From: Oceanobacillus kimchii X50
Lineage (GTDB): Bacteria; Bacillota; Bacilli; Bacillales; Amphibacillaceae
Reading direction: 5' to 3'
DNA: 64,000 nucleotides
NCBI RefSeq assembly: GCF_000340475.1
Contig: NZ_CM001792.1
Location: 3,585,253 to 3,649,252, forward strand
The notes under the pieces were generated by a model that searched no databases, was not told the origin of the DNA, and saw only the letters and a program-made list of their open reading frames with translations. Position numbers and translations under genes: made by a program. The first letter of the stretch is position 1, and the number at the start of each line of letters is the position of its first letter. This document shows, one piece after another, positions 14,395 to 22,691 of the stretch.

Positions 14395-14850
14395 TCAAGG
14401 TCTATTTTCCTTCACTTCTTCAAACCATAAATCATACGGTAGTAGTTCGTCATCAATCGAATAAACTAAATCATATCTATATTTCCCTTTTAAGCTATTT
14501 TTCTTTACATTATAATATAATTTCATTTCTGTTGGCATTTCTTTATTGAACTCTTTACATTTATTATGAATAAGTTTTAAATTTTGATTACCTATTCTTA
14601 ATGCGTCCTTCTGTCTTTCCCTCGAAATATCGTAAACTTGATTGTGTTGACTATCTCCTTTTGCAACCTCGCTTAGTTGATGTTTATGAACAATCTTCCC
14701 ATTAATTTTATAGAAAAAATCAAAAACATACATTTCGGGTTCATATGAACAATAAATAAAGATCTCATCTGCTTTATTATCGACATATTCTAAACAAGTA
14801 GCCACCATATCTGTTTGTAATTCTGAAAAATAGTCCTCAAATACCTTCAT
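14395..14850 (-). CDS. DUF600/YezG-family immunity protein
   Basis: A 151-residue cytoplasmic protein of the YezG (DUF600) family, known in Bacillus subtilis as the antitoxin of the LXG nuclease YeeF. Typical features are the N-terminal helix with FSELQTDM, the central EIFIYCSYEP segment and the C-terminal YDLVYSIDDELLPYDLWFEE. ATG 14850 (second of two tandem ATGs) is 6 nt after AGGGGG. The ribosome binding site overlaps the stop of a degraded toxin tail (14861-15027), the usual toxin-immunity order. The cognate toxin here is broken, so this is now an orphan immunity gene. Confidence 0.85.
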   Translation of the reverse strand: MKVFEDYFSELQTDMVATCLEYVDNKADEIFIYCSYEPEMYVFDFFYKINGKIVHKHQLSEVAKGDSQHNQVYDISRERQKDALRIGNQNLKLIHNKCKEFNKEMPTEMKLYYNVKKNSLKGKYRYDLVYSIDDELLPYDLWFEEVKENRP

Positions 14851-14860
14851 CATAATCCCC

Positions 14861-15027
14861 CTAATTTTCTAAACTTGCAAATCTCATACGACCATCTATT
14901 TCATATTCTATATCAAAGCTTTTCGGTCTTAAACTGTTTCCTTCGAATTAACTTTAACATTAACTGAAACATCTTTTCCTTTTTCTATTGCTTTAGCCCA
15001 AACGTTAAGTAACTTAGATTTTAGAAC
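14861..15027 (-). pseudogene. C-terminal remnant of a YeeF-type LXG DNase toxin
   Basis: Frame one reads VLKSKLLNVWAKAIEKGKDV... to a stop at about 14930. A one-base shift gives NSLRPKSFDIEYEIDGRMRF...LEN then stop at 14861. Together they match the last 50 or so residues of YeeF-like DNase toxins, whose immunity proteins are DUF600. Adding one G at 14940-14941 would restore the frame (KGNSLRP). The upstream part of the toxin is missing and a terminator abuts it, so it is a silent relic. Confidence 0.65.
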
Positions 15028-15031
15028 TTAA

Positions 15032-15060
15032 AAAGAGCATTCTTAAATAAGAATACTCTC
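15032..15060 (-). terminator. Terminator upstream of the YeeF-type toxin remnant
   Basis: Minus-strand GAGTATTCTT / AAGAATGCTC forms a 10-bp stem (one G-U pair) with a 4-5 nt loop and TTTTT tail. It ends the transcript of the gene at 15099-15707 and isolates the downstream remnant and DUF600 gene. Confidence 0.75.
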
Positions 15061-15098
15061 TTAAGCAATGACCATACACCAATTAATATTGGTTCCTA

Positions 15099-15707
15099 TT
15101 AACCAATAAGATATAATTCTTTAAGGGTTTCTATAAAATCAGTATCTCCCTTAACATCTACCTTATTAATAAGATAATGAAATTGACGTAGTTTAATAGA
15201 AAAATTATATAAAACAGCCGCTGCGCTATTCATGTTTCTAGATTTATCTATATAAACCTTAGAATCTTTTTTTCCTAAAAACAAAACGTTATATTTATCA
15301 TTTTTGCTTTTTTCTAAAATTATTTTATCTTGTTTAAGTACCAAAATAGAATAATACTGTTCATCTATAGAAGTTTTAAATATTTGTTCAATATCCGTTA
15401 ATGAGGTCGCAACTTTAATTTTGTTTTTAACATTTGCATCATAATTTCTTACTTCTAACTTACTTTTCACAAAAATATATAAAGCCAATACTGACTTATA
15501 TTCATCTATAAATGTATCTACTTTATATTCTTTACCTCGAACTACTTCAAAAAGTTCATACTGATTTTGTACTTCATTTAAAGTTAATTTAACTATTTTT
15601 TCTGGATAAGCTTCACCACCTAATGGGGCTACACAAATAAAACCTTTTTCCTTTTTGGTCACTTTAAATTCTGTATCGATTAAATTATAAATACGACTTA
15701 CGTCCAT
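15099..15707 (-). CDS. Unknown protein, candidate immunity protein
   Basis: A 202-residue soluble protein with alternating strands and helices and no recognised motif; it starts MDVSRIYNLIDTEFKV. It lies in an array of LXG toxin modules and immunity genes, 121 bp after a SUKH gene, and ends just before a terminator. Position and size suggest another immunity protein whose toxin module has been lost, but this is inferred only from context. Confidence 0.6.
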   Translation of the reverse strand: MDVSRIYNLIDTEFKVTKKEKGFICVAPLGGEAYPEKIVKLTLNEVQNQYELFEVVRGKEYKVDTFIDEYKSVLALYIFVKSKLEVRNYDANVKNKIKVATSLTDIEQIFKTSIDEQYYSILVLKQDKIILEKSKNDKYNVLFLGKKDSKVYIDKSRNMNSAAAVLYNFSIKLRQFHYLINKVDVKGDTDFIETLKELYLIG

Positions 15708-15828
15708 AAATATTTATTTTTCCTCCCTTTCTCTTGTTTTCCCACCAGTCTCACTTCATATCCATAATAAACATACATTATTTATGTCGTCTTAGGGTAG
15801 AAAATTTGACATCTACAGGAAAACTGTA

Positions 15829-16359
15829 TTAATCCTTATCATCATTTATTTCTTTTAAAAAATCAGGATCAATCCAAACACCTTCAACTTTATAATCACC
15901 TAAATCTTCGTCATGGTCATAGGGTTTAATAACATTTAAGAAATCTGTAAAACTACTAGCTACTTTTATAAGAGGATTAGCTGAATAAATATTTTCGTCT
16001 ATGAGTTCTGTATCATGGTCCCAGAAATTTATACTCTCGTTATGAATATTTAAACAAACTATACTTCCTCCCTCTACTCTACAAATAGGTAAATTTCCAT
16101 TTGGTACCCGTTCTTTATATATTTCAAATTGATATTTTAAATCAAAGATTTTAGCATTACCAATACCAAAAAAGTCAGTTATCGAAAATGACCTTATTTC
16201 TTCACTTTGAAGTTTAACAATGTTTAATTTAGGAGTTCCACCATTATTCATTTCTAAGAAATTCTTATAATCTTTTGGTAAACTAACGCCTAACTCTTTT
16301 TGAAAGTTATCAAATTCTTTCTCATTAAACTCTACATTACTTGGTTTTATTTCAAGCAT
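15829..16359 (-). CDS. SMI1/KNR4 (SUKH) family immunity protein
   Basis: A 176-residue SUKH-superfamily protein. Hallmarks are the N-terminal helix then LGVSLPKDYKNFLEMNNGG (about 29-47), ITDFFGIGNAK, LPICRVEGGSIVCLNI and INFWDHDTEL. SUKH proteins neutralise nuclease toxins by direct binding in the cytoplasm. It begins 30 bp after the end of the WHH-nuclease module at 16389-16946, so it is presumably that module's immunity protein, retained although the toxin now carries a stop. Confidence 0.9.
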   Translation of the reverse strand: MLEIKPSNVEFNEKEFDNFQKELGVSLPKDYKNFLEMNNGGTPKLNIVKLQSEEIRSFSITDFFGIGNAKIFDLKYQFEIYKERVPNGNLPICRVEGGSIVCLNIHNESINFWDHDTELIDENIYSANPLIKVASSFTDFLNVIKPYDHDEDLGDYKVEGVWIDPDFLKEINDDKD

Positions 16360-16388
16360 TATTTACACCTCTTTCAGGATAATTTAAA

Positions 16389-16946
16389 TCACGGCGCTAA
16401 TCCTTTTCTGATTAATGCCGCACCACCGGTATGTCTAACAGCCTGATGTAAATCTGTCGGTACCAACATTAATGTTCTACCATCTTCCACATGATGCTAT
16501 GTAAAACCTCTAGGAGTTTTCTTTAATCCTAGAGTTTTATTTGCAACAGTAAAATCACTGGTTGTATTTCCTTTTAATCCATCTACTTTTACATTAACTT
16601 TAGAATAAGGACTAAAATCTGGGAAACGATCTTTTGTGAATTTAACTCCATTTGGATACTTTTTAGCTAACTCACCACTTAGCCTGTACGTCTGTCCTGC
16701 ATATTTCTTATTTATAATTCTAACACCTTCATATTTAAACCCTTTATCCACATCCCCACTAAATTCACTCTTCTTCGCAGGAACCTCACCCTTACTATTC
16801 ACTTTAAAGCCATCATATTCCTTCACTAGCTTGCCAGCTTTTCCAAATTTCCCGATTGGTAATAAGAAAAACCCAGCCATCGCGTTCTCGCCAACTGTTG
16901 CTTCATTATCTACTAGTGTTTTCATTTCGTCGAGATTTTCCCACAA
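16389..16946 (-). pseudogene. Silent LXG-toxin C-terminal module, WHH nuclease with nonsense codon
   Basis: Residues 10-60 of this frame (TLVDNEATVGENAMAGFFLL...) nearly repeat the pre-toxin linker of the complete LXG toxin at 20523-22379. The tail is a WHH-type HNH/endonuclease VII domain in which the Trp codon is TAG (16497-16499): GFT-stop-HHVEDGRTLMLV..., then open to TGA at 16389. No LXG domain is present, the frame opens only at a TTG without ribosome binding site, and a terminator lies immediately upstream. It is thus an orphan cassette with a dead toxin. Confidence 0.8.
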
Positions 16947-16990
16947 AAAAGATTGAAATAAGAGTTTTAACTTCTTATTTCAATCTTAAA
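16945..16990 (-). terminator. Terminator upstream of silent WHH module
   Basis: AAGATTGAAATAAGA / TCTTATTTCAATCTT forms a perfect 15-bp stem followed on the minus strand by TTTTTT. It follows the YrhA-like pseudogene and directly abuts the start of the silent module at 16946. Confidence 0.9.
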
Positions 16991-17024
16991 TATATTCAAA
17001 ATTATTGTTTTAGTTTCCATTCTC

Positions 17025-17486
17025 TTACAAAAGAACTGTTTTTAATGCCTCTCCCAACATAGATTCAAAACTAACATACGTTTGAATTTTGGTCCCTGAA
17101 GGTTTATCGAGTTCAACAAATACGTTCTCTTTCAGATCATAACAATACCAAGCTGTATTTGAGTCTCCAAAAAAAATATATTACTTTTGCCACTCATTCT
17201 CATACCAAAGCTCGTTACTCTCAATAATCCCATGGACATCATCCTCTACTTCTTGATCAAGAAGAACTTTATCCACACCATAAATTACTAATCCATTAAA
17301 ATCTAAACCATTTATTGTCTTGAGAAATTCAATATATTGACTAGGTAATAAAATGCTCCCTAATTTCTGCTGAATATAATCATTCATTTTTTTAATTTCA
17401 GCATCCGTGGCCGGAATTCTTAGTGAATCTCCGTATTTTTCTTCAATTTTCTCTATTTCTACCAATAAATTTTTCCACTGGGGCAT
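17025..17486 (-). pseudogene. YrhA-like/SUKH-type immunity gene with in-frame stop
   Basis: The frame starts at ATG 17486 behind GAAAGGAG (MPQWKNLLVEIEKIEEKY) and reads a SUKH-like domain (LPSQYIEFLKTINGLDFNG). It hits TAA at 17181-17183, then continues in the same frame with YIFFGDSNTAWYCYDL...SFESMLGEALKTVL to a stop at 17025. The continuation is typical of the C-terminal half of YrhA-like SUKH proteins, so the TAA is a nonsense mutation, possibly CAA to TAA. It follows a toxin tail ending at 17500 and was probably that toxin's immunity gene. Confidence 0.75.
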
Positions 17487-17499
17487 ATCTACACTCCTT

Positions 17500-17955
17500 T
17501 CATTTAAATGGTTTTGATGGATACAGATCCCCATCAAACATAGGCCAATCTATCTTCTTACTTTGTTTAGGCGCTAATCCTCGTGTTAAAGAGTTTTGTT
17601 CATTAGTTATCGCTTTATGATAAGGATCATTCTTTATCAAGACTAGGTTCACCATTTCTATCACTACCCTTACTCACATTCGAACTCCCACCACTACCCC
17701 CACTTCGAAGAGTGTCCGTCTTAACTAAATGATAAGCTCCAGTTGCATCCTGTACAAGCCCGACTTCAGGCATTCGTACACGGAACCACTCGCGAATGTT
17801 GGTTAGTGTTGGTAATTTTCCAGGTATATACGTATTAGTACTTGATACAGTAGATTTAGTACTTGGTGAATCCTTGTCTTTCTTCGGTGCTGCTTGTGCA
17901 CCTGTCGTTTTACTATTTGGAACGGATATACCTGCTTTAGGGCTTGATGTCATGA
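17500..17955 (-). pseudogene. Silent LXG-toxin C-terminal module, frameshifted
   Basis: From about 17955 the frame reads SPKAGISVPNSKTTGAQAA...NIREWFRVRMPEVGLVQDATG, almost the same as residues 130-215 of the module at 18560-19651, then stops at 17627. In another frame the DNA continues as NDPYHKAITNEQNSLTRGLAP...DLYPSKPFK with its stop at 17500, immediately before the YrhA-like immunity gene. This looks like a toxin C-terminus disrupted by a frameshift or deletion. It lacks an LXG domain and ribosome binding site, and a terminator lies upstream. Confidence 0.7.
17700..17955. repeat. Pre-toxin linker repeat shared by two silent modules
   Basis: About 250 bp here are roughly 90 % identical by eye to 19020-19272, in direct orientation. 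Both encode the SPKAG...NIREWFRVRMPEVGLVQDATGAYHLVKTD linker. It is absent from the live toxin. Confidence 0.8.
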
Positions 17956-18014
17956 AAGCGAAAACAATTCTTCGTATTGTTTTCTTCGAATAACGTAATA
18001 TTATTTGCCCATTA

Positions 18015-18067
18015 GAAAAACACCTCCAACCCTGTATATTTTTATATACGATGTTGGGGGTGCTTTT
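18015..18067 (-). terminator. Terminator upstream of second silent module
   Basis: Minus-strand GCACCCCCAAC / GTTGGAGGTGT arms with an AT-rich loop, followed by TTTTT. It closes the SUKH gene at 18096-18545 and precedes the silent module ending at 17500. Confidence 0.85.
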
Positions 18068-18095
18068 ACTGTACCATTTATTACTTCTGTTTTTC

Positions 18096-18545
18096 CTATG
18101 CTTCAGGATCCTCATAGAGATTATCCAAAAATTCATTAATATCATCTGCTAAAAAATACATATTTCTCATATCATCTGGATTTTCCAGTTCCTGTTCATG
18201 ATCCCAAAAATAAATCTTGTCGTAATAAGGTTCCTTTGTCCCTAAACATATAACATTTCCTGAGGGATCATCTCCTATTGGAATAAATCCTACTGGTAAC
18301 CTCTCATCCATTATCTCAATAAAGTCTGTCAAATTATCATACATATCACCAATACCATAAAAAACATTCAAAACACTTGGTCCTTGCTCAGTGGATATCA
18401 TAAATAAATTAGGTATCACTTTCCCCCCATTCCATTTTAATAAAAAATTAGTATACTGTTCAGTTAGTTTCATGTTATTTTCATTTTCAAATGTTTCTAT
18501 TTGTTCTAAAGAAAGATTATCATGTGTACCATAGATTTCCGCCAT
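18096..18545 (-). CDS. SMI1/KNR4 (SUKH) family immunity protein
   Basis: A 149-residue SUKH protein: LTEQYTNFLLKWNGGKV at about 27-43, VLNVFYGIGDMYDNL, PIGDDPSGNVICLG and KIYFWDHEQEL are the family's conserved segments. It begins 14 bp after the stop of the WHH-nuclease module at 18560 and is presumably its immunity protein. Because the toxin module has no start or promoter of its own, expression of this gene needs either read-through or a promoter inside the module. Confidence 0.9.
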   Translation of the reverse strand: MAEIYGTHDNLSLEQIETFENENNMKLTEQYTNFLLKWNGGKVIPNLFMISTEQGPSVLNVFYGIGDMYDNLTDFIEIMDERLPVGFIPIGDDPSGNVICLGTKEPYYDKIYFWDHEQELENPDDMRNMYFLADDINEFLDNLYEDPEA

Positions 18546-18559
18546 ATATATCCTCCTAA

Positions 18560-19651
18560 CTAATTTCCATTAATGATACTTATTCCACCTGCATGAGTAA
18601 ATTCTCTATGAACTTTTTTATCGACAAGAATCATCGTTTTTCCATCTTGATGATGATGCCAAGTATAACCTTCAGGAGCTTCATTTAAAGAAGCAACTGG
18701 TGGATTAGAGTCTTTATTCAATCCTGACTTGATATTTGCATTTTTATAATCTAAAGGGCGATTTGTTGGACTTGCTATATCAATTTCTACTGGTTTAACA
18801 GTTGGATGTGCAAACTCAGTGAAATCTGGATATCCATTAGGGTAACTTACTGTTTGACCTTTTTTATTTGTATATACCCACGTTCCATTGTTACCTATTT
18901 CCACAGTTCCTCCTTTTTTCACCCATTTCTCAGGAGCCGGTGAATATGAGGGTTTATTTGTAAGTTGTTCTTTTGTAAATTTTATTTGTTTACTCTCATT
19001 CGAACTCCCACTACTCCCCCCACTTCGAGGGATATCCGTCTTAACTAAATGATAAGCTCCAGTTGCATCCTGTACAAGCCCGACTTCTGGCATTCTCACA
19101 CGGAACCACTCGCGAATGTTGGTTAGTGTTGGTAATTTACCAGGTACATACGTATTATTACTCGATACAGGAGAGTTAGTACTTGTTGAATCCTTGCTTT
19201 TCTTCGGTGCTGCTTGTGCACCTGTCGTTTTACTATTTGGAGTGGATATACCTGCTTTAGGACTTGGTGTCCGTATAAACATAAGCATACCCATTGAAAT
19301 CACATGCGCAACATGTTCTTTTGAATTTGGATCATCCGGATTAAACGCACCCTCAGCAAGATCCACTCCACCCATTGTTACCCAGTTGGCAAAATCCGCA
19401 GGCGAATTTAACATGTTTTCACTATAGCCTACCATCGAATTGTAAGTATTCTTTCCACCATCTAAAGCACCGACGGTTAAATAATTGGCAAAGTCATAAA
19501 AAGAATTCATCTCATTATCATTTAATTCTTCTAGATGATTGCCAAACCCTTGAACTGCGTCTTTCCCTAGTTCATAAGTTGAATCTAACGTTCTCATAAA
19601 GCTAGATCCAAATCTATTTAGAAAGCCCTTATCCTCTTCCACCGGCTTCAA
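18560..19651 (-). CDS. LXG-less toxin C-terminal module with intact WHH nuclease
   Basis: An open frame of 363 codons that starts inside a conserved linker (KPVEEDKG), not at a real start: the first codon is TTG, the frame is open further upstream (VGNIPEERLKPVEE) and no ribosome binding site is present. Residues about 130-215 are the SPKAG...VKTD linker shared with the module at 17500. The C-terminus is an intact WHH nuclease domain (Trp331-His-His, YTWHHHQDGKTMILV...THAGG). It would encode an active toxin only after fusion to an LXG domain. A SUKH immunity gene follows at 14 bp. Confidence 0.75.
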   Translation of the reverse strand: MKPVEEDKGFLNRFGSSFMRTLDSTYELGKDAVQGFGNHLEELNDNEMNSFYDFANYLTVGALDGGKNTYNSMVGYSENMLNSPADFANWVTMGGVDLAEGAFNPDDPNSKEHVAHVISMGMLMFIRTPSPKAGISTPNSKTTGAQAAPKKSKDSTSTNSPVSSNNTYVPGKLPTLTNIREWFRVRMPEVGLVQDATGAYHLVKTDIPRSGGSSGSSNESKQIKFTKEQLTNKPSYSPAPEKWVKKGGTVEIGNNGTWVYTNKKGQTVSYPNGYPDFTEFAHPTVKPVEIDIASPTNRPLDYKNANIKSGLNKDSNPPVASLNEAPEGYTWHHHQDGKTMILVDKKVHREFTHAGGISIINGN

Positions 19652-19668
19652 GCGTTCTTCTGGAATAT
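19629..19668. repeat. 40-bp linker repeat, copy at silent WHH module
   Basis: Partner of 21322-21361, identical over 40 bases and in the same reading frame relative to the linker. It marks the left limit of homology between the live toxin and the silent module. Confidence 0.85.
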
Positions 19669-19702
19669 TTCCTACAACAATTAAAGAGTTACATGATATA
19701 TT

Positions 19703-19738
19703 AAAAAGTGCGAATCAATAATCCTTGATTCACACTTA
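19703..19738 (-). terminator. Terminator upstream of third silent module
   Basis: AAGTG-C-GAATCAA / TTGATTC-A-CACTT stem (one mismatch) with a 6-nt loop and TTTTT on the minus strand. It follows the degraded immunity gene at 19749-20040 and lies about 40 bp before the linker that opens the WHH module. Confidence 0.85.
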
Positions 19739-19748
19739 GTTTTGTTTT

Positions 19749-20040
19749 TTAATCTGATAGTAATTTCAAATAGTACTTATCATTCTCTTCTATTCTAGTT
19801 AAAAATTCCTCAAGGGAATTCGCTATTTGGATATCATAATAATAAACTGGATTTCTTCTATCATCGTTTAATTCAATTGATATTAAAGCAGTTTCACTAC
19901 CTTCGAAAAAAATTAATTTATTATTCTCATATTATTCACAAATTTCAATATCAGGATAATACTCAAAATTATTTATTCTCAAACGATCCTAAAAATCAAA
20001 TTGAAAAGTTAAAACGGCATTAAGGAATAAAGAATATAAG
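19749..20040 (-). pseudogene. Degraded SUKH-like immunity gene
   Basis: One frame reads LNAVLTFQFDF-stop-DRLRINNFEYYPDIEICE-stop-YENNKLIFFEGSETALISIEL...SLEEFLTRIEE...LLSD-stop (19749). The C-terminal pattern (a tryptophan- or tyrosine-rich strand, then SLEEFL) is typical of SMI1/KNR4-like immunity proteins. Two in-frame stops and no visible start make it a pseudogene. It follows the live YobK-like immunity gene. Confidence 0.55.
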
Positions 20041-20057
20041 AAGATGCCGCCAATTAA

Positions 20058-20507
20058 TTAAATATCTTCTTCCCAAGCCTCTTTTGCATCCATCAACCTC
20101 TGTGATAAAAACTCATAAAAACCACCAGCTGTGTTAAATTCATCAAGTCCCCCTTGCCTATTCCATGCTATTACTGGACATTCTTTATTTTCCATATTAC
20201 CTGTATCTAAACAATAAGCATATTCATCTACATCTTCAATGACTACTAATTTCTCACTCATTCCTAAATCCCTATAATTCTCCGTTTCTATAACGACAGA
20301 AGCTATATTATGATTAGACACTCCTAAAATATCGACACCAAATAAACCACCAGACCCAAAATTATTTAAAAACCACTTATAACTTTCTGGCAACTCTAAC
20401 TTTAGAGCATCTTGAACATAATCAATCTGATTATTATCTACTCCTCCAGTAAAATCATCTGGCTCCATATTTCTCTTAATAAATTCCGTTAATTCCTCTT
20501 CATTCAT
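20058..20507 (-). CDS. YobK-like SUKH immunity protein of the complete LXG toxin
   Basis: A 149-residue SUKH protein closely resembling Bacillus subtilis YobK: LPESYKWFLNNFGSGGLFGVDILGV at about 38-62 and EDVDEYAYCLDT, with a DxxEAWEEDI acidic C-terminus. YobK is the antitoxin of YobL, an LXG toxin with a C-terminal HNH-type nuclease like the one encoded just upstream. ATG 20507 is preferred over the TTG at 20510 because AAAAGGAGGAG is well spaced. It lies 15 bp after the toxin stop, translationally next in the operon. Confidence 0.9.
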   Translation of the reverse strand: MNEEELTEFIKRNMEPDDFTGGVDNNQIDYVQDALKLELPESYKWFLNNFGSGGLFGVDILGVSNHNIASVVIETENYRDLGMSEKLVVIEDVDEYAYCLDTGNMENKECPVIAWNRQGGLDEFNTAGGFYEFLSQRLMDAKEAWEEDI

Positions 20508-20522
20508 CAAAGACTCCTCCTT

Positions 20523-22379
20523 TTAGAAATCTCCATTATCTATCTGGTTAGCTCTCCATCTCCAATATTTTGACCTGAAATTTTCATATTGCTTCTTTAA
20601 GGCAGGATCATTTCTAAAGCTACCACCATTCTCTACTAATCCATGCAATATTCTATCATATTCTTTATGCATACTACTTGGAATCTCCACCATTGATCCA
20701 GGTTCTTTTTGAATTAAATGATGAAGTTCTATTTTCGTTCCATCTTTCCAAATTGGAGGTCTCCCTTTTTTCATTAATTGATAATTACTTTTGCCAGTCT
20801 TAGGGTCTATTCTCTCATAATCAATATCTAGCCTTTGATATACTCTTCTGCTAGTATCTCTTATTTCTCCGTTAACTTTTGTTGTTCCAGTATATTCTAC
20901 ATCCTTATAGTTTTTATAGTCTTTACCAGTATTATTGCTATTACCACTCTTCTTCGCAGGAATTTCACCCTTACTAGTCACTTTAAAGCCATCATATTCT
21001 TTCACTAGCTTGCCAGCTTTTCCAAATTTCCCAATCGGCAGTAGGAAAAATCCAGCCATAGCCTTTTCGCCAACAGTTGCTTCATCATCTACTAGAGTTT
21101 TTACGTCATCAAGGAATAAAAAGTCTACTGCTGCTTTTCCACCTTGGAGGGTCTTCTCACCTGCCCATGCTGCTCCATCAACTATTGCATCTCCTGCTTT
21201 GAAGGCGCCGTCCCACATTTTCTTACTAGAATTTACCGTTTCATTTAACAGCTTTCCGCCTATTTCAACCGTTCCATCCGCCACTTTTTTCGATAGGGCT
21301 ACGGTATGATCCCATAGGCTTTTATCCTCTTCCACCGGCTTCAAGCGTTCTTCTGGAATATCTCCCACAAAATGATACTTCATGACACCATCGTGATCCA
21401 TGAAGGAGCGAACGATTCTTCCATCTTGCAACGTAAGATAGTTTCCGTAGTATTCACCTTTATAATCACGTACCGATTGGCTGCTTACAACCTTAGCATC
21501 TAAGCTCTTGTACTCATCTTCTAGCATGACTGGAGATGTCGTATCGACGATAGTTGCTAAGGCGCGCATGCGATAACTCATCGTCATACTCATTGTATCA
21601 TTTAATTGTGCTCGTACAATCGATGCAGCTGTATTTCCCATTGCAAGATAACTAGAGTTGGTTATCGATCTAAATATGTCTAAGACAACATCTTTCGGTA
21701 TGGTTTTTTGTACAATTCCAGCAATCATTTGCTGGTGGACATCGAGTTGTGTAATCGAGTTTGTTTGGTAACTCGTCATAATCAATTGGCGATCTTTTGT
21801 TAACGATTGAATGTCAGAGAGGTAATTTTCTAGGAGGTCCACATCGTTTTCCGTAGTTGTTAATTTATGGGTTGCTTCTTGATCAAATTGATGAAGCTTT
21901 TCAATGGTTTTATTTACTTTGCTTTCTGTCTTTTCGACACTGTGTATGAATTGATCATCGGATAGATCTGACAGATGAATAATATCACGTACCGAACGTA
22001 AGATATCATTCGTTTCATCGGTAAGTTGTGCCGTTTGTTCTTTCGCTTTATTTAATTGACGCTTCATTTCTGTTTTTAGAAAATCCTCGTCAATAAATGC
22101 TTGTTCGGATCTGTCTAGCTCATACAATAACTGTTGAATTTGCCTTAGAATATCATGATACTCTCGAACAATTCCTTCTAAATAAACTGCTAGTGGTGCA
22201 TGGATATCTTTATAAAAAGCCCTGATGGAAGATGCTGCTTGACCACTAAAATCGGACTCAGTATTCAGTATACCAGTAATTTTTCCGTGTACTTCTGCCA
22301 CTTGATTTGCTAACTCAGATAATAGCTTTGTCGTCTGTTCAATTCCTTCATGAATCGTTGAAGCTTCTATTGTCTTCAT
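20523..22379 (-). CDS. LXG-domain type VII toxin with C-terminal LHH nuclease (YobL-like)
   Basis: A 618-residue polymorphic toxin. Residues 1-200 are the helical LXG domain used for type VII (Esx/Yuk) secretion. A middle domain follows, then a linker from IPEERLKPVEEDK (about 339-351) through AMAGFFLLPIGKFGKAGK, then the toxin: an HNH/endonuclease VII-type domain with L552-H-H554 (KIELHHLIQKEPGS) and a Trp-rich tail. It should cut nucleic acid in rival cells. It is the only complete toxin of the locus, between the YwqI-like helper and the YobK-like immunity protein. Its linker recurs in downstream silent modules. Confidence 0.9.
   Translation of the reverse strand: MKTIEASTIHEGIEQTTKLLSELANQVAEVHGKITGILNTESDFSGQAASSIRAFYKDIHAPLAVYLEGIVREYHDILRQIQQLLYELDRSEQAFIDEDFLKTEMKRQLNKAKEQTAQLTDETNDILRSVRDIIHLSDLSDDQFIHSVEKTESKVNKTIEKLHQFDQEATHKLTTTENDVDLLENYLSDIQSLTKDRQLIMTSYQTNSITQLDVHQQMIAGIVQKTIPKDVVLDIFRSITNSSYLAMGNTAASIVRAQLNDTMSMTMSYRMRALATIVDTTSPVMLEDEYKSLDAKVVSSQSVRDYKGEYYGNYLTLQDGRIVRSFMDHDGVMKYHFVGDIPEERLKPVEEDKSLWDHTVALSKKVADGTVEIGGKLLNETVNSSKKMWDGAFKAGDAIVDGAAWAGEKTLQGGKAAVDFLFLDDVKTLVDDEATVGEKAMAGFFLLPIGKFGKAGKLVKEYDGFKVTSKGEIPAKKSGNSNNTGKDYKNYKDVEYTGTTKVNGEIRDTSRRVYQRLDIDYERIDPKTGKSNYQLMKKGRPPIWKDGTKIELHHLIQKEPGSMVEIPSSMHKEYDRILHGLVENGGSFRNDPALKKQYENFRSKYWRWRANQIDNGDF
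21322..21361. repeat. 40-bp linker repeat, copy in live LXG toxin
   Basis: This 40-bp stretch, coding the IPEERLKPVEED part of the linker, is identical base for base to 19629-19668 at the start of the silent WHH module. It is in direct orientation 1.7 kb apart, so homologous recombination would delete the intervening DNA and fuse LXG to the WHH toxin. Confidence 0.85.
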
Positions 22380-22409
22380 TCTCCTAAATCCTTCCCTCCT
22401 ACTCCCCCG

Positions 22410-22691
22410 CTAGGATTCAATCATTTCTATTCCTTTTGCAGCCATTCTTTCCTCTTCTTCTAAACTATCTAACGTACGATAAGCAGTAAAAAGATGTTTT
22501 GTGGAGATTTCTCGATATCTTTCGGTCAGCTCTTGCAAACGTTGATTTAGCTGGTTTATTTTCTCAACTACTTCTACGTTGTTGTTGCCGCGAATATCCG
22601 AGATCCCTTTCAACTTCACTTGGTTGACTGCCTTTTCATAGTCTTGAAGTTTATGTTCAACCGGACTTCGATTCAATTTTATTTCACCCAT
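22410..22691 (-). CDS. YwqI/YxiC-like LXG helper (WXG100-sized, DUF5344-type)
   Basis: A 93-residue, almost wholly helical protein of WXG100-like size with coiled-coil character (NQLNQRLQELTERYREIS). It lies 30 bp before the LXG toxin, the position of YwqI/YxiC-type partners that bind the LXG domain and guide it to the type VII machinery. The DUF5082 (YwqH-type) second helper usually found beside it is absent. It is the first gene of the operon; a candidate promoter lies at 22767-22795. Confidence 0.75.
   Translation of the reverse strand: MGEIKLNRSPVEHKLQDYEKAVNQVKLKGISDIRGNNNVEVVEKINQLNQRLQELTERYREISTKHLFTAYRTLDSLEEEERMAAKGIEMIES

What the first reader, a model, noticed from the sequence alone, without database searches (positions are those of the whole stretch)
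14395..22691. LXG type VII toxin locus with an array of silent C-terminal toxin cassettes
One complete unit (helper, LXG-LHH toxin, YobK-like immunity) is followed by at least three toxin C-terminal modules without LXG domain, start codon or ribosome binding site, and by six or seven immunity-type genes or relics of different families (SUKH, YrhA-like, DUF600, unknown). Orphan tip cassettes are known for Rhs and CdiA systems; a well-ordered cassette store beside an LXG toxin is much less described. The layout predicts toxin switching by recombination while past immunities are kept.
Basis: partly seen in the sequence, partly recalled or inferred. Interest (0 to 1): 0.85.

Follow-up and report, generated by a model that had tools for sequence, protein, structure and literature searches.

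The report
LXG toxin locus with displaced tips
A bacterium of the genus Oceanobacillus carries one complete antibacterial toxin gene followed by a row of cut-off, mostly broken ends of other toxins with their immunity genes, and in a sister species the working and silent types have changed places; this kind of layout is already known, but the exchange is unusually clear here.

Summary
On the minus strand a complete DUF5344 helper / LXG-LHH toxin / YobK-like immunity unit is followed by three toxin C-terminal modules without an LXG domain or evident start, a fourth short relic, and six further immunity-type genes or relics. Two of the three modules are broken: closer to a graveyard with one intact spare than to a well-ordered store. 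The DUF600 label was not reproduced.

At the same site in O. iheyensis HTE831 the active toxin carries the pre-tip type that is silent in the window, and a silent module there carries the type active in the window. Five near-identical LXG carriers hold at least four unrelated tips. A broken tip in the O. iheyensis row is intact on an LXG carrier of a close relative. Relatives of silent tips T1 and T3 sit on LXG carriers elsewhere in the family.

In a family survey 15 of 59 LXG loci have such modules; over all loci examined, 18 of 34 modules start within 120 nt after a terminator-like hairpin (2.8 expected). Best reading: successive replacement of the toxin 3' end, leaving old tips and immunities behind. 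Orphan LXG modules were described before, so this is a new member of a known kind.

The parts
22410..22691 (-). helper, DUF5344 (LXG partner type)
   Evidence: PF17279 E 6.6e-23
20523..22379 (-). active toxin: LXG domain, pre-tip A, LHH nuclease tip (618 aa)
   Evidence: PF04740 E 3.5e-59, PF14411 E 7.6e-26
21322..21370 (-). 49-nt tract of the active gene repeated at the 5' edge of M1, read in the same frame in both
   Evidence: 96% identical
20058..20510 (-). I0, YobK-like SUKH_5 immunity gene
   Evidence: PF14567, 2prv E 4.8e-35
19985..20057 (+). inverted relic of the tip carried by P0102 (Oceanobacillus sp. E9)
   Evidence: E 4.7e-5 in the wider search, 6.3e-7 in the small one
19747..19950 (-). 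relic, probably the C-terminal part of an immunity gene (inferred from position and frame)
   Evidence: DNA 78% identical to L039 over window 19748-19986; frames
19706..19737 (-). terminator-like hairpin before M1
18560..19677 (-). M1: 49 nt of LXG-side sequence, pre-tip B, WHH tip (T1); open frame, no evident start
   Evidence: PF14414, PF12639; 92% over 683 nt to the active gene of O. iheyensis
18096..18545 (-). I1, SUKH-1 immunity gene
   Evidence: PF09346 E 7.8e-19
18018..18066 (-). terminator-like hairpin before M2 (bounds approximate)
   Evidence: T-run at 18020, -19.4 kcal/mol; not found by the built-in scan
17503..17951 (-). M2: half of pre-tip B and last part of an HNH tip (T2); frame broken
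   Evidence: 282-nt repeat; 98% to the C-terminus of P0072
17181..17486 (-). I2, YrhA-like immunity gene, truncated
   Evidence: NF038335, profile 1-98 of 150
16950..16990 (-). terminator-like hairpin before M3 (bounds approximate)
   Evidence: T-run at 16950, -16.3 kcal/mol; not found by the built-in scan
16389..16946 (-). M3: end of pre-tip A and a WHH-like tip (T3) with an in-frame stop
   Evidence: 169-nt repeat; P0082 64% over 16730-16392
15829..16359 (-). I3, SUKH-1 immunity gene
   Evidence: PF09346 E 4.8e-19
15099..15707 (-). I4, unknown family, immunity by position
   Evidence: no Pfam family over its cut-off
15001..15069 (-). 69 nt with a terminator-like hairpin, shared with the O. 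iheyensis row
   Evidence: 97% identical to L036 7864-7932; T-run at 15034
14880..15000 (-). M4: relic of the C-terminus of an NS_2-type tip
   Evidence: P0002 E 1.1e-5, P0098 E 2e-5 in a search of three short stretches
14395..14853 (-). I5, unknown family, immunity by position; not DUF600 by Pfam
   Evidence: relative in L039 (63-66%); last 13 residues kept in O. iheyensis

Best explanation
An LXG polymorphic-toxin locus whose 3' end has been replaced several times. Most likely each event brought in DNA with the 3' part of an LXG gene carrying a new tip, its immunity gene and a terminator; the left end recombined within the conserved LXG half and the right end joined the resident gene at a poorly matched place. 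The resident tip, cut off from its LXG half and behind the incoming terminator, fell silent and began to decay; its immunity gene kept its own ribosome-binding site and could go on protecting. Shown: the layout, the exchanged active and silent types between sister species, unrelated tips on near-identical carriers, hairpins at many module edges. Inferred: the direction and order of events, the one-sided (homologous plus illegitimate) joining, and continued work of the old immunities.
For: Exchanged pre-tip types at the same site in two species. Five carriers 94.6-98.0% identical over residues 1-350, with four known and unrelated tips. The GHH tip of P0101 is a relic in the O. iheyensis row; the tip of P0102 is an inverted relic in the window. 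Terminator-like hairpins within 120 nt before 18 of 34 modules, 2.8 expected; 14 of 29 against 2.4 without the window and O. iheyensis; 0 of 20,000 simulated draws as high. In 32 of 34 modules the similarity to the active gene stops at least 150 nt before its end. Relaxed constraint in silent pre-tips: dN/dS 0.23 for M1 and 0.43 for M2 against 0.05 for the LXG half and 0.11 for two flanking genes.
Against: No pair of strains one step apart was found. Terminators follow genes anyway, so their place shows units, not insertion; the built-in scan confirms only the M1 hairpin of the four on this strand. Decay does not increase with distance in the survey (open frame in 5 of 18, 2 of 8 and 3 of 8 modules at rank 1, 2 and 3 or more). 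M3 against the active gene has dN/dS 0.11, no relaxation, over 57 codons. Edge positions do not exclude deletion from complete tandem units. The inverted fragment at 19985-20057 needs an extra event.
Confidence: 0.62

Rival explanations
1. Switching store: the cell reloads its own LXG gene from the silent modules by homologous recombination, as reported for Rhs in Salmonella.
For: M1 is open and shares a 49-nt, 96% tract with the active gene, read in the same frame. Precedent for Rhs (PMC3967940, abstract) and a naturally loaded orphan discussed for CdiA (PMC3150448, passages).
Against: M2 and M3 are broken. Reloading from M1 would remove the present immunity gene, a drawback also raised for CdiA. 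No such junction was seen in the data available.
Confidence: 0.17
2. Decayed tandem: the row once was a series of complete LXG-immunity units; later ones lost helper and LXG half by deletion while the immunities were kept by selection.
For: Some surveyed loci have further LXG-bearing sequence downstream on the same strand (for example L075, L087, L092).
Against: No helper remnant shows up at DNA level at the modules of the window or O. iheyensis. The exchange of types between sister species needs replacement anyway.
Confidence: 0.15
3. Assembly error at repeats.
For: Repeats of this kind do break assemblies: P0003 ends and P0001 begins inside the same pre-tip stretch.
Against: Single-contig genome estimated 100% complete; comparable layout at the same site in the single-contig O. 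iheyensis genome and similar modules at 15 of 59 surveyed loci.
Confidence: 0.02

Closest known systems
Orphan LXG toxin modules of Enterococcus faecalis OG1RF (PMC7790226, passages)
   Same: C-terminal toxin fragments downstream of full-length LXG genes, 5' parts more than 75% DNA-similar to the LXG gene, relatives full-length in other strains and in Listeria
   Different: No exchange of active and silent types at one site is described in the passages read; here two species compared, terminators at edges, and a family survey
Orphan cdiA-CT/cdiI modules (PMC3150448, passages)
   Same: Start-less tip plus immunity modules in rows behind the full gene, some matching the active tip of another strain
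   Different: Different delivery system; orphan toxin and immunity activity was tested there, not here; no VENN-type fixed joint here
Rhs orphan of Salmonella LT2 (PMC3967940, abstract)
   Same: Silent tip with its immunity gene behind the main gene
   Different: In-place recombination shown there by experiment; only possible here
Vibrio cholerae T6SS immunity arrays by successive displacement (PMC5361080, abstract and section 13)
   Same: New effector-immunity unit at the front, old immunities shifted back; one-sided homology proposed
   Different: Mainly immunity genes remain there; here tips remain too
tspA fragment in the tsaI cluster of S. aureus (PMC9484751, passages)
   Same: 3' toxin fragment at a T7SS toxin locus, discussed as a recombination partner
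   Different: A fragment of tspA itself; the authors saw no recombination in their data

Membership tests
[quoted passage not shown]
   PF04740 and PF14411; other tips on near-identical carriers
LXG (T7SSb) polymorphic toxin | small helical partner gene and adjacent immunity gene | tested here: met
   DUF5344, SUKH_5/YobK
LXG (T7SSb) polymorphic toxin | type VIIb machinery in the genome | tested here: met
   YukC/EssB at G000:C1:1351013-1352083, E 9.6e-138; other components not searched
LXG (T7SSb) polymorphic toxin | export and toxicity | not testable with these tools
   needs experiment
Orphan toxin-tip module (sense used for CdiA, Rhs, LXG) | 3' toxin fragment downstream, similar to the main gene in its 5' part, unrelated tip, own immunity gene | tested here: met
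Orphan toxin-tip module (sense used for CdiA, Rhs, LXG) | no translation or export signal | tested here: met
   no LXG domain in M1-M3 frames; no good ribosome-binding site before M1's first in-frame ATG (M2 and M3 not scored)
Orphan toxin-tip module (sense used for CdiA, Rhs, LXG) | same tip fused to the carrier in other strains | tested here: inconclusive
   met for relics (GHH tip of P0101, tip of P0102) and, at 59-79% identity, for T1 and T3 types in other genera; not shown for T1 at near identity (P0001 truncated) nor for T2
Active switching store | silent modules kept intact | tested here: not met
   M2 and M3 broken; about 10 of 34 modules open by a rough measure
Active switching store | in-place recombination with the main gene | not testable with these tools
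   needs populations or many strains
   14395-14853: no Pfam family at E <= 1, while PF04634 matches the comparison genes in L043 and L041

The most novel reading that the evidence does not exclude
LXG loci in this family behave as front-loaded cassette rows: terminator-ended tip-immunity units are added at one place behind a constant LXG half, old units shift back, silenced but still giving immunity, and an intact one such as M1 can be loaded again through short in-frame repeats, so that active and silent types change places between close strains.
Probability: 0.3. Interest if true: 0.68.

Novelty: new member of a known kind. Interest (0 to 1): 0.5.

Why it matters
It gives a natural, two-species view of how a type VII LXG toxin changes its warhead while the delivery half and the site stay the same, and a first rough frequency (15 of 59 examined LXG loci of one family carry such remnants). 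It supports reading immunity arrays beside LXG toxins as a record of past toxins, and warns that public 'HNH endonuclease' entries such as P0072 may be start-less remnants.

Tried and rejected
DUF600 for 14395-14853: rejected. A decay gradient along the row as support for front-end addition: seen by eye in the window and O. iheyensis, absent in the survey, dropped. Edge positions as a test between displacement and deletion: spoiled by the classification, which sets modules with a detectable LXG domain aside, and by the odd locus L095, 11 of 43 clusters labelled orphan start upstream of the gene, at least 9 of them because the upstream 1 kb itself recurs downstream without toxin sequence (L045, L056, L076, L080), so it is not used as proof. 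Lower synonymous divergence of pre-tip B (0.218) than of the LXG half (0.454) as a sign of recent exchange: not used, because flanking genes vary as much (0.166 and 0.386). Two dN/dS comparisons with the third O. iheyensis module fell into a wrong frame and were discarded. The promoter scan gave 47 sites against 38.9 expected (sd 6.7), so nothing follows about transcription. The genome-contig scan gave two loci (Oceanobacillus sp. CFH 90083, O. manasiensis); neither has an orphan module downstream of the LXG gene, though an NS_2-like fragment lies upstream of the first (L042 9201-9314). The Listeria LXG diversity paper 10.1099/mic.0.001034 is not held and was not checked.
Full report
What is there. 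The window lies in a single-contig genome of 3.83 Mb. Its relatives are Oceanobacillus (P0001, named O. kimchii, 97% identical over 71% of the M1 query); the species is inferred. On the minus strand a DUF5344 helper, an LXG toxin with an LHH nuclease tip and a YobK-like immunity gene form a complete unit. YukC/EssB of the type VII machinery is encoded elsewhere in the genome.

The silent part. Behind the unit come a short inverted relic of another tip, a probable immunity relic, a terminator-like hairpin, and M1 (19677-18560): 49 nt of LXG-side sequence, a pre-tip region (type B) and a WHH nuclease tip, open throughout, followed by a SUKH gene. M2 (half of pre-tip B and the last part of an HNH tip, frame broken) is followed by a truncated YrhA-like gene; M3 (end of pre-tip A and a WHH-like tip with an in-frame stop) by a SUKH gene; then come I4, a hairpin, a relic of an NS_2-type tip and I5. 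I4, I5 and the relic are immunity-like by position only. The four strongest hairpins of the stretch, by my folding scan, stand before M1, M2, M3 and the NS_2 relic; the built-in scan finds only the first of them on this strand.

A search of 28 genomes of the genus, the window's own included, found matches to the toxin in 9; besides the window's own, one match to the LXG carrier exceeds 80% identity, in G008. G008 is O. iheyensis HTE831: its contig has the length of P0097's contig, and P0097 bears that name. The flanks are collinear at 91-93% identity. The active toxin there has pre-tip B, 92% identical over 683 nt to the window's silent M1; its first silent module has pre-tip A, the type active in the window. 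The compared tips of the two rows do not match each other, but the last 13 residues of I5 remain at the far end of the O. iheyensis row and a 69-nt stretch with a hairpin is shared.

More carriers. Among public proteins P0101 and P0102 (98.0 and 97.7% identical to the window toxin over residues 1-350) carry pre-tip A with two other tips; P0003 (98.0%) carries pre-tip B but its record ends there; P0097 is at 95.4%. The GHH tip of P0101 is a relic in three pieces at the end of the O. iheyensis row. The tip of P0102 (Oceanobacillus sp. E9) is the inverted relic in the window. In a search with M1, 27 of 96 proteins found carry both LXG and WHH domains. T1 was found in 16 of 159 genomes of the family, the P0072 query (pre-tip plus T2) in 13 and T3 in 9, the window's own included. 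By coordinates, T1 relatives lie in LXG frames in G140 (79%), G086 (65%), G113 (61%) and, more distant, G138 (47%), and as an orphan downstream of an LXG gene in G110 (73%); T3 relatives lie in LXG frames in G033 and G034 (62%); a T2-like stretch with stops lies downstream of an LXG gene in G080. An LXG-fused T2 was not established. T1 at 99% is known only from P0001, whose record begins inside the pre-tip region, so its state is undecided.

How common. I took 60 loci by hand from the upper part of that list, choosing open frames of about 500 aa or more; several such rows were left out. One had too little downstream DNA. Of the remaining 59, 15 have at least one downstream stretch on the same strand that is DNA-similar to the toxin gene after codon 200 and shows no LXG domain (22 stretches, some only 50-60 nt long). 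Minus-strand matches occurred in 2 loci. With the window (2 by this measure, M2 not counted), O. iheyensis (3) and L038 of G020 (7), which were chosen because they have rows, there are 34 modules in 18 of 64 loci; the two other pre-fetched loci have none. In 32 of 34 the similarity stops at least 150 nt before the end of the active gene, so the tips differ.

Edges. A terminator-like hairpin lies within 120 nt before 18 of 34 modules; 2.8 are expected from hairpin density in the same stretches, and 0 of 20,000 simulated draws were as high; without the window and O. iheyensis it is 14 of 29 against 2.4. So modules tend to start behind the end of the preceding unit. This does not by itself prove insertion, since terminators follow genes anyway. 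Among modules with toxin sequence, L095 apart, edges lie between about nt 475 and 1631 of the carrier gene.

Decay. dN/dS between the window and O. iheyensis is 0.05 for the LXG half and 0.11 for two flanking genes; M1's pre-tip against the active O. iheyensis copy gives 0.23, M2 0.43, M1 against M2 0.40; M3 against the window's active gene gives 0.11 over only 57 codons, no sign of relaxation. About 10 of 34 modules have an open frame of 50 or more residues beyond the similarity, without a trend by rank (gaps in the alignments make this rough).

Mechanism and known systems. The pattern fits stepwise replacement of the toxin 3' end with old tips and immunities left behind, as argued for Vibrio T6SS (PMC5361080, abstract and section 13) and in general by Zhang et al. 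(PMC3482391, passages). In-place reloading, reported for Rhs (PMC3967940, abstract), stays possible because M1 is intact and shares an in-frame 49-nt tract with the active gene. Orphan LXG modules with full-length relatives were reported in E. faecalis (PMC7790226, passages), and an orphan toxin domain at telC in S. intermedius (PMC9600955, passages). Text searches for LXG with Oceanobacillus and with illegitimate recombination found no paper. The wider searches on orphan, cassette or displaced LXG toxins listed none whose title or abstract opening compares active and silent states at one LXG site; I read passages of a few only, and most subscription papers are not held.

Verdict. A real feature, well seen and partly over-read: a new and clear member of a known kind.

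Noticed in passing
window 19985-20057 (+): A short inverted fragment of the tip carried by P0102 (Oceanobacillus sp. E9) stands between I0 and the immunity relic; an extra rearrangement is needed to explain its orientation.
   Followed up: partly
L041 3286-7751 (genome G026): A row of LXG-type modules (pre-tip B, WHH-like tip, SUKH-like gene, NS_2 tip remnant with YezG-like immunity) beside a broken phage-type integrase (PF14657, PF14659); no LXG gene was seen in this 8-kb stretch.
   Followed up: partly
L038 (G020:C4:72000-91990): The longest row met: seven module-like stretches over about 14 kb behind one LXG gene.
   Followed up: partly
window 14395-14853 and 15099-15707: Two immunity-like genes of no known Pfam family; the first has a relative in L039 (63-66%).
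   Followed up: partly
L036 7866-7740: The third O. iheyensis module has lost the middle of its pre-tip A; by eye the loss lies between short direct repeats.
   Followed up: no
P0001 and P0003: Two protein records break in the same pre-tip stretch, probably because assemblies stop at these repeats; fused and orphan tips may be mis-scored in draft genomes.
   Followed up: no
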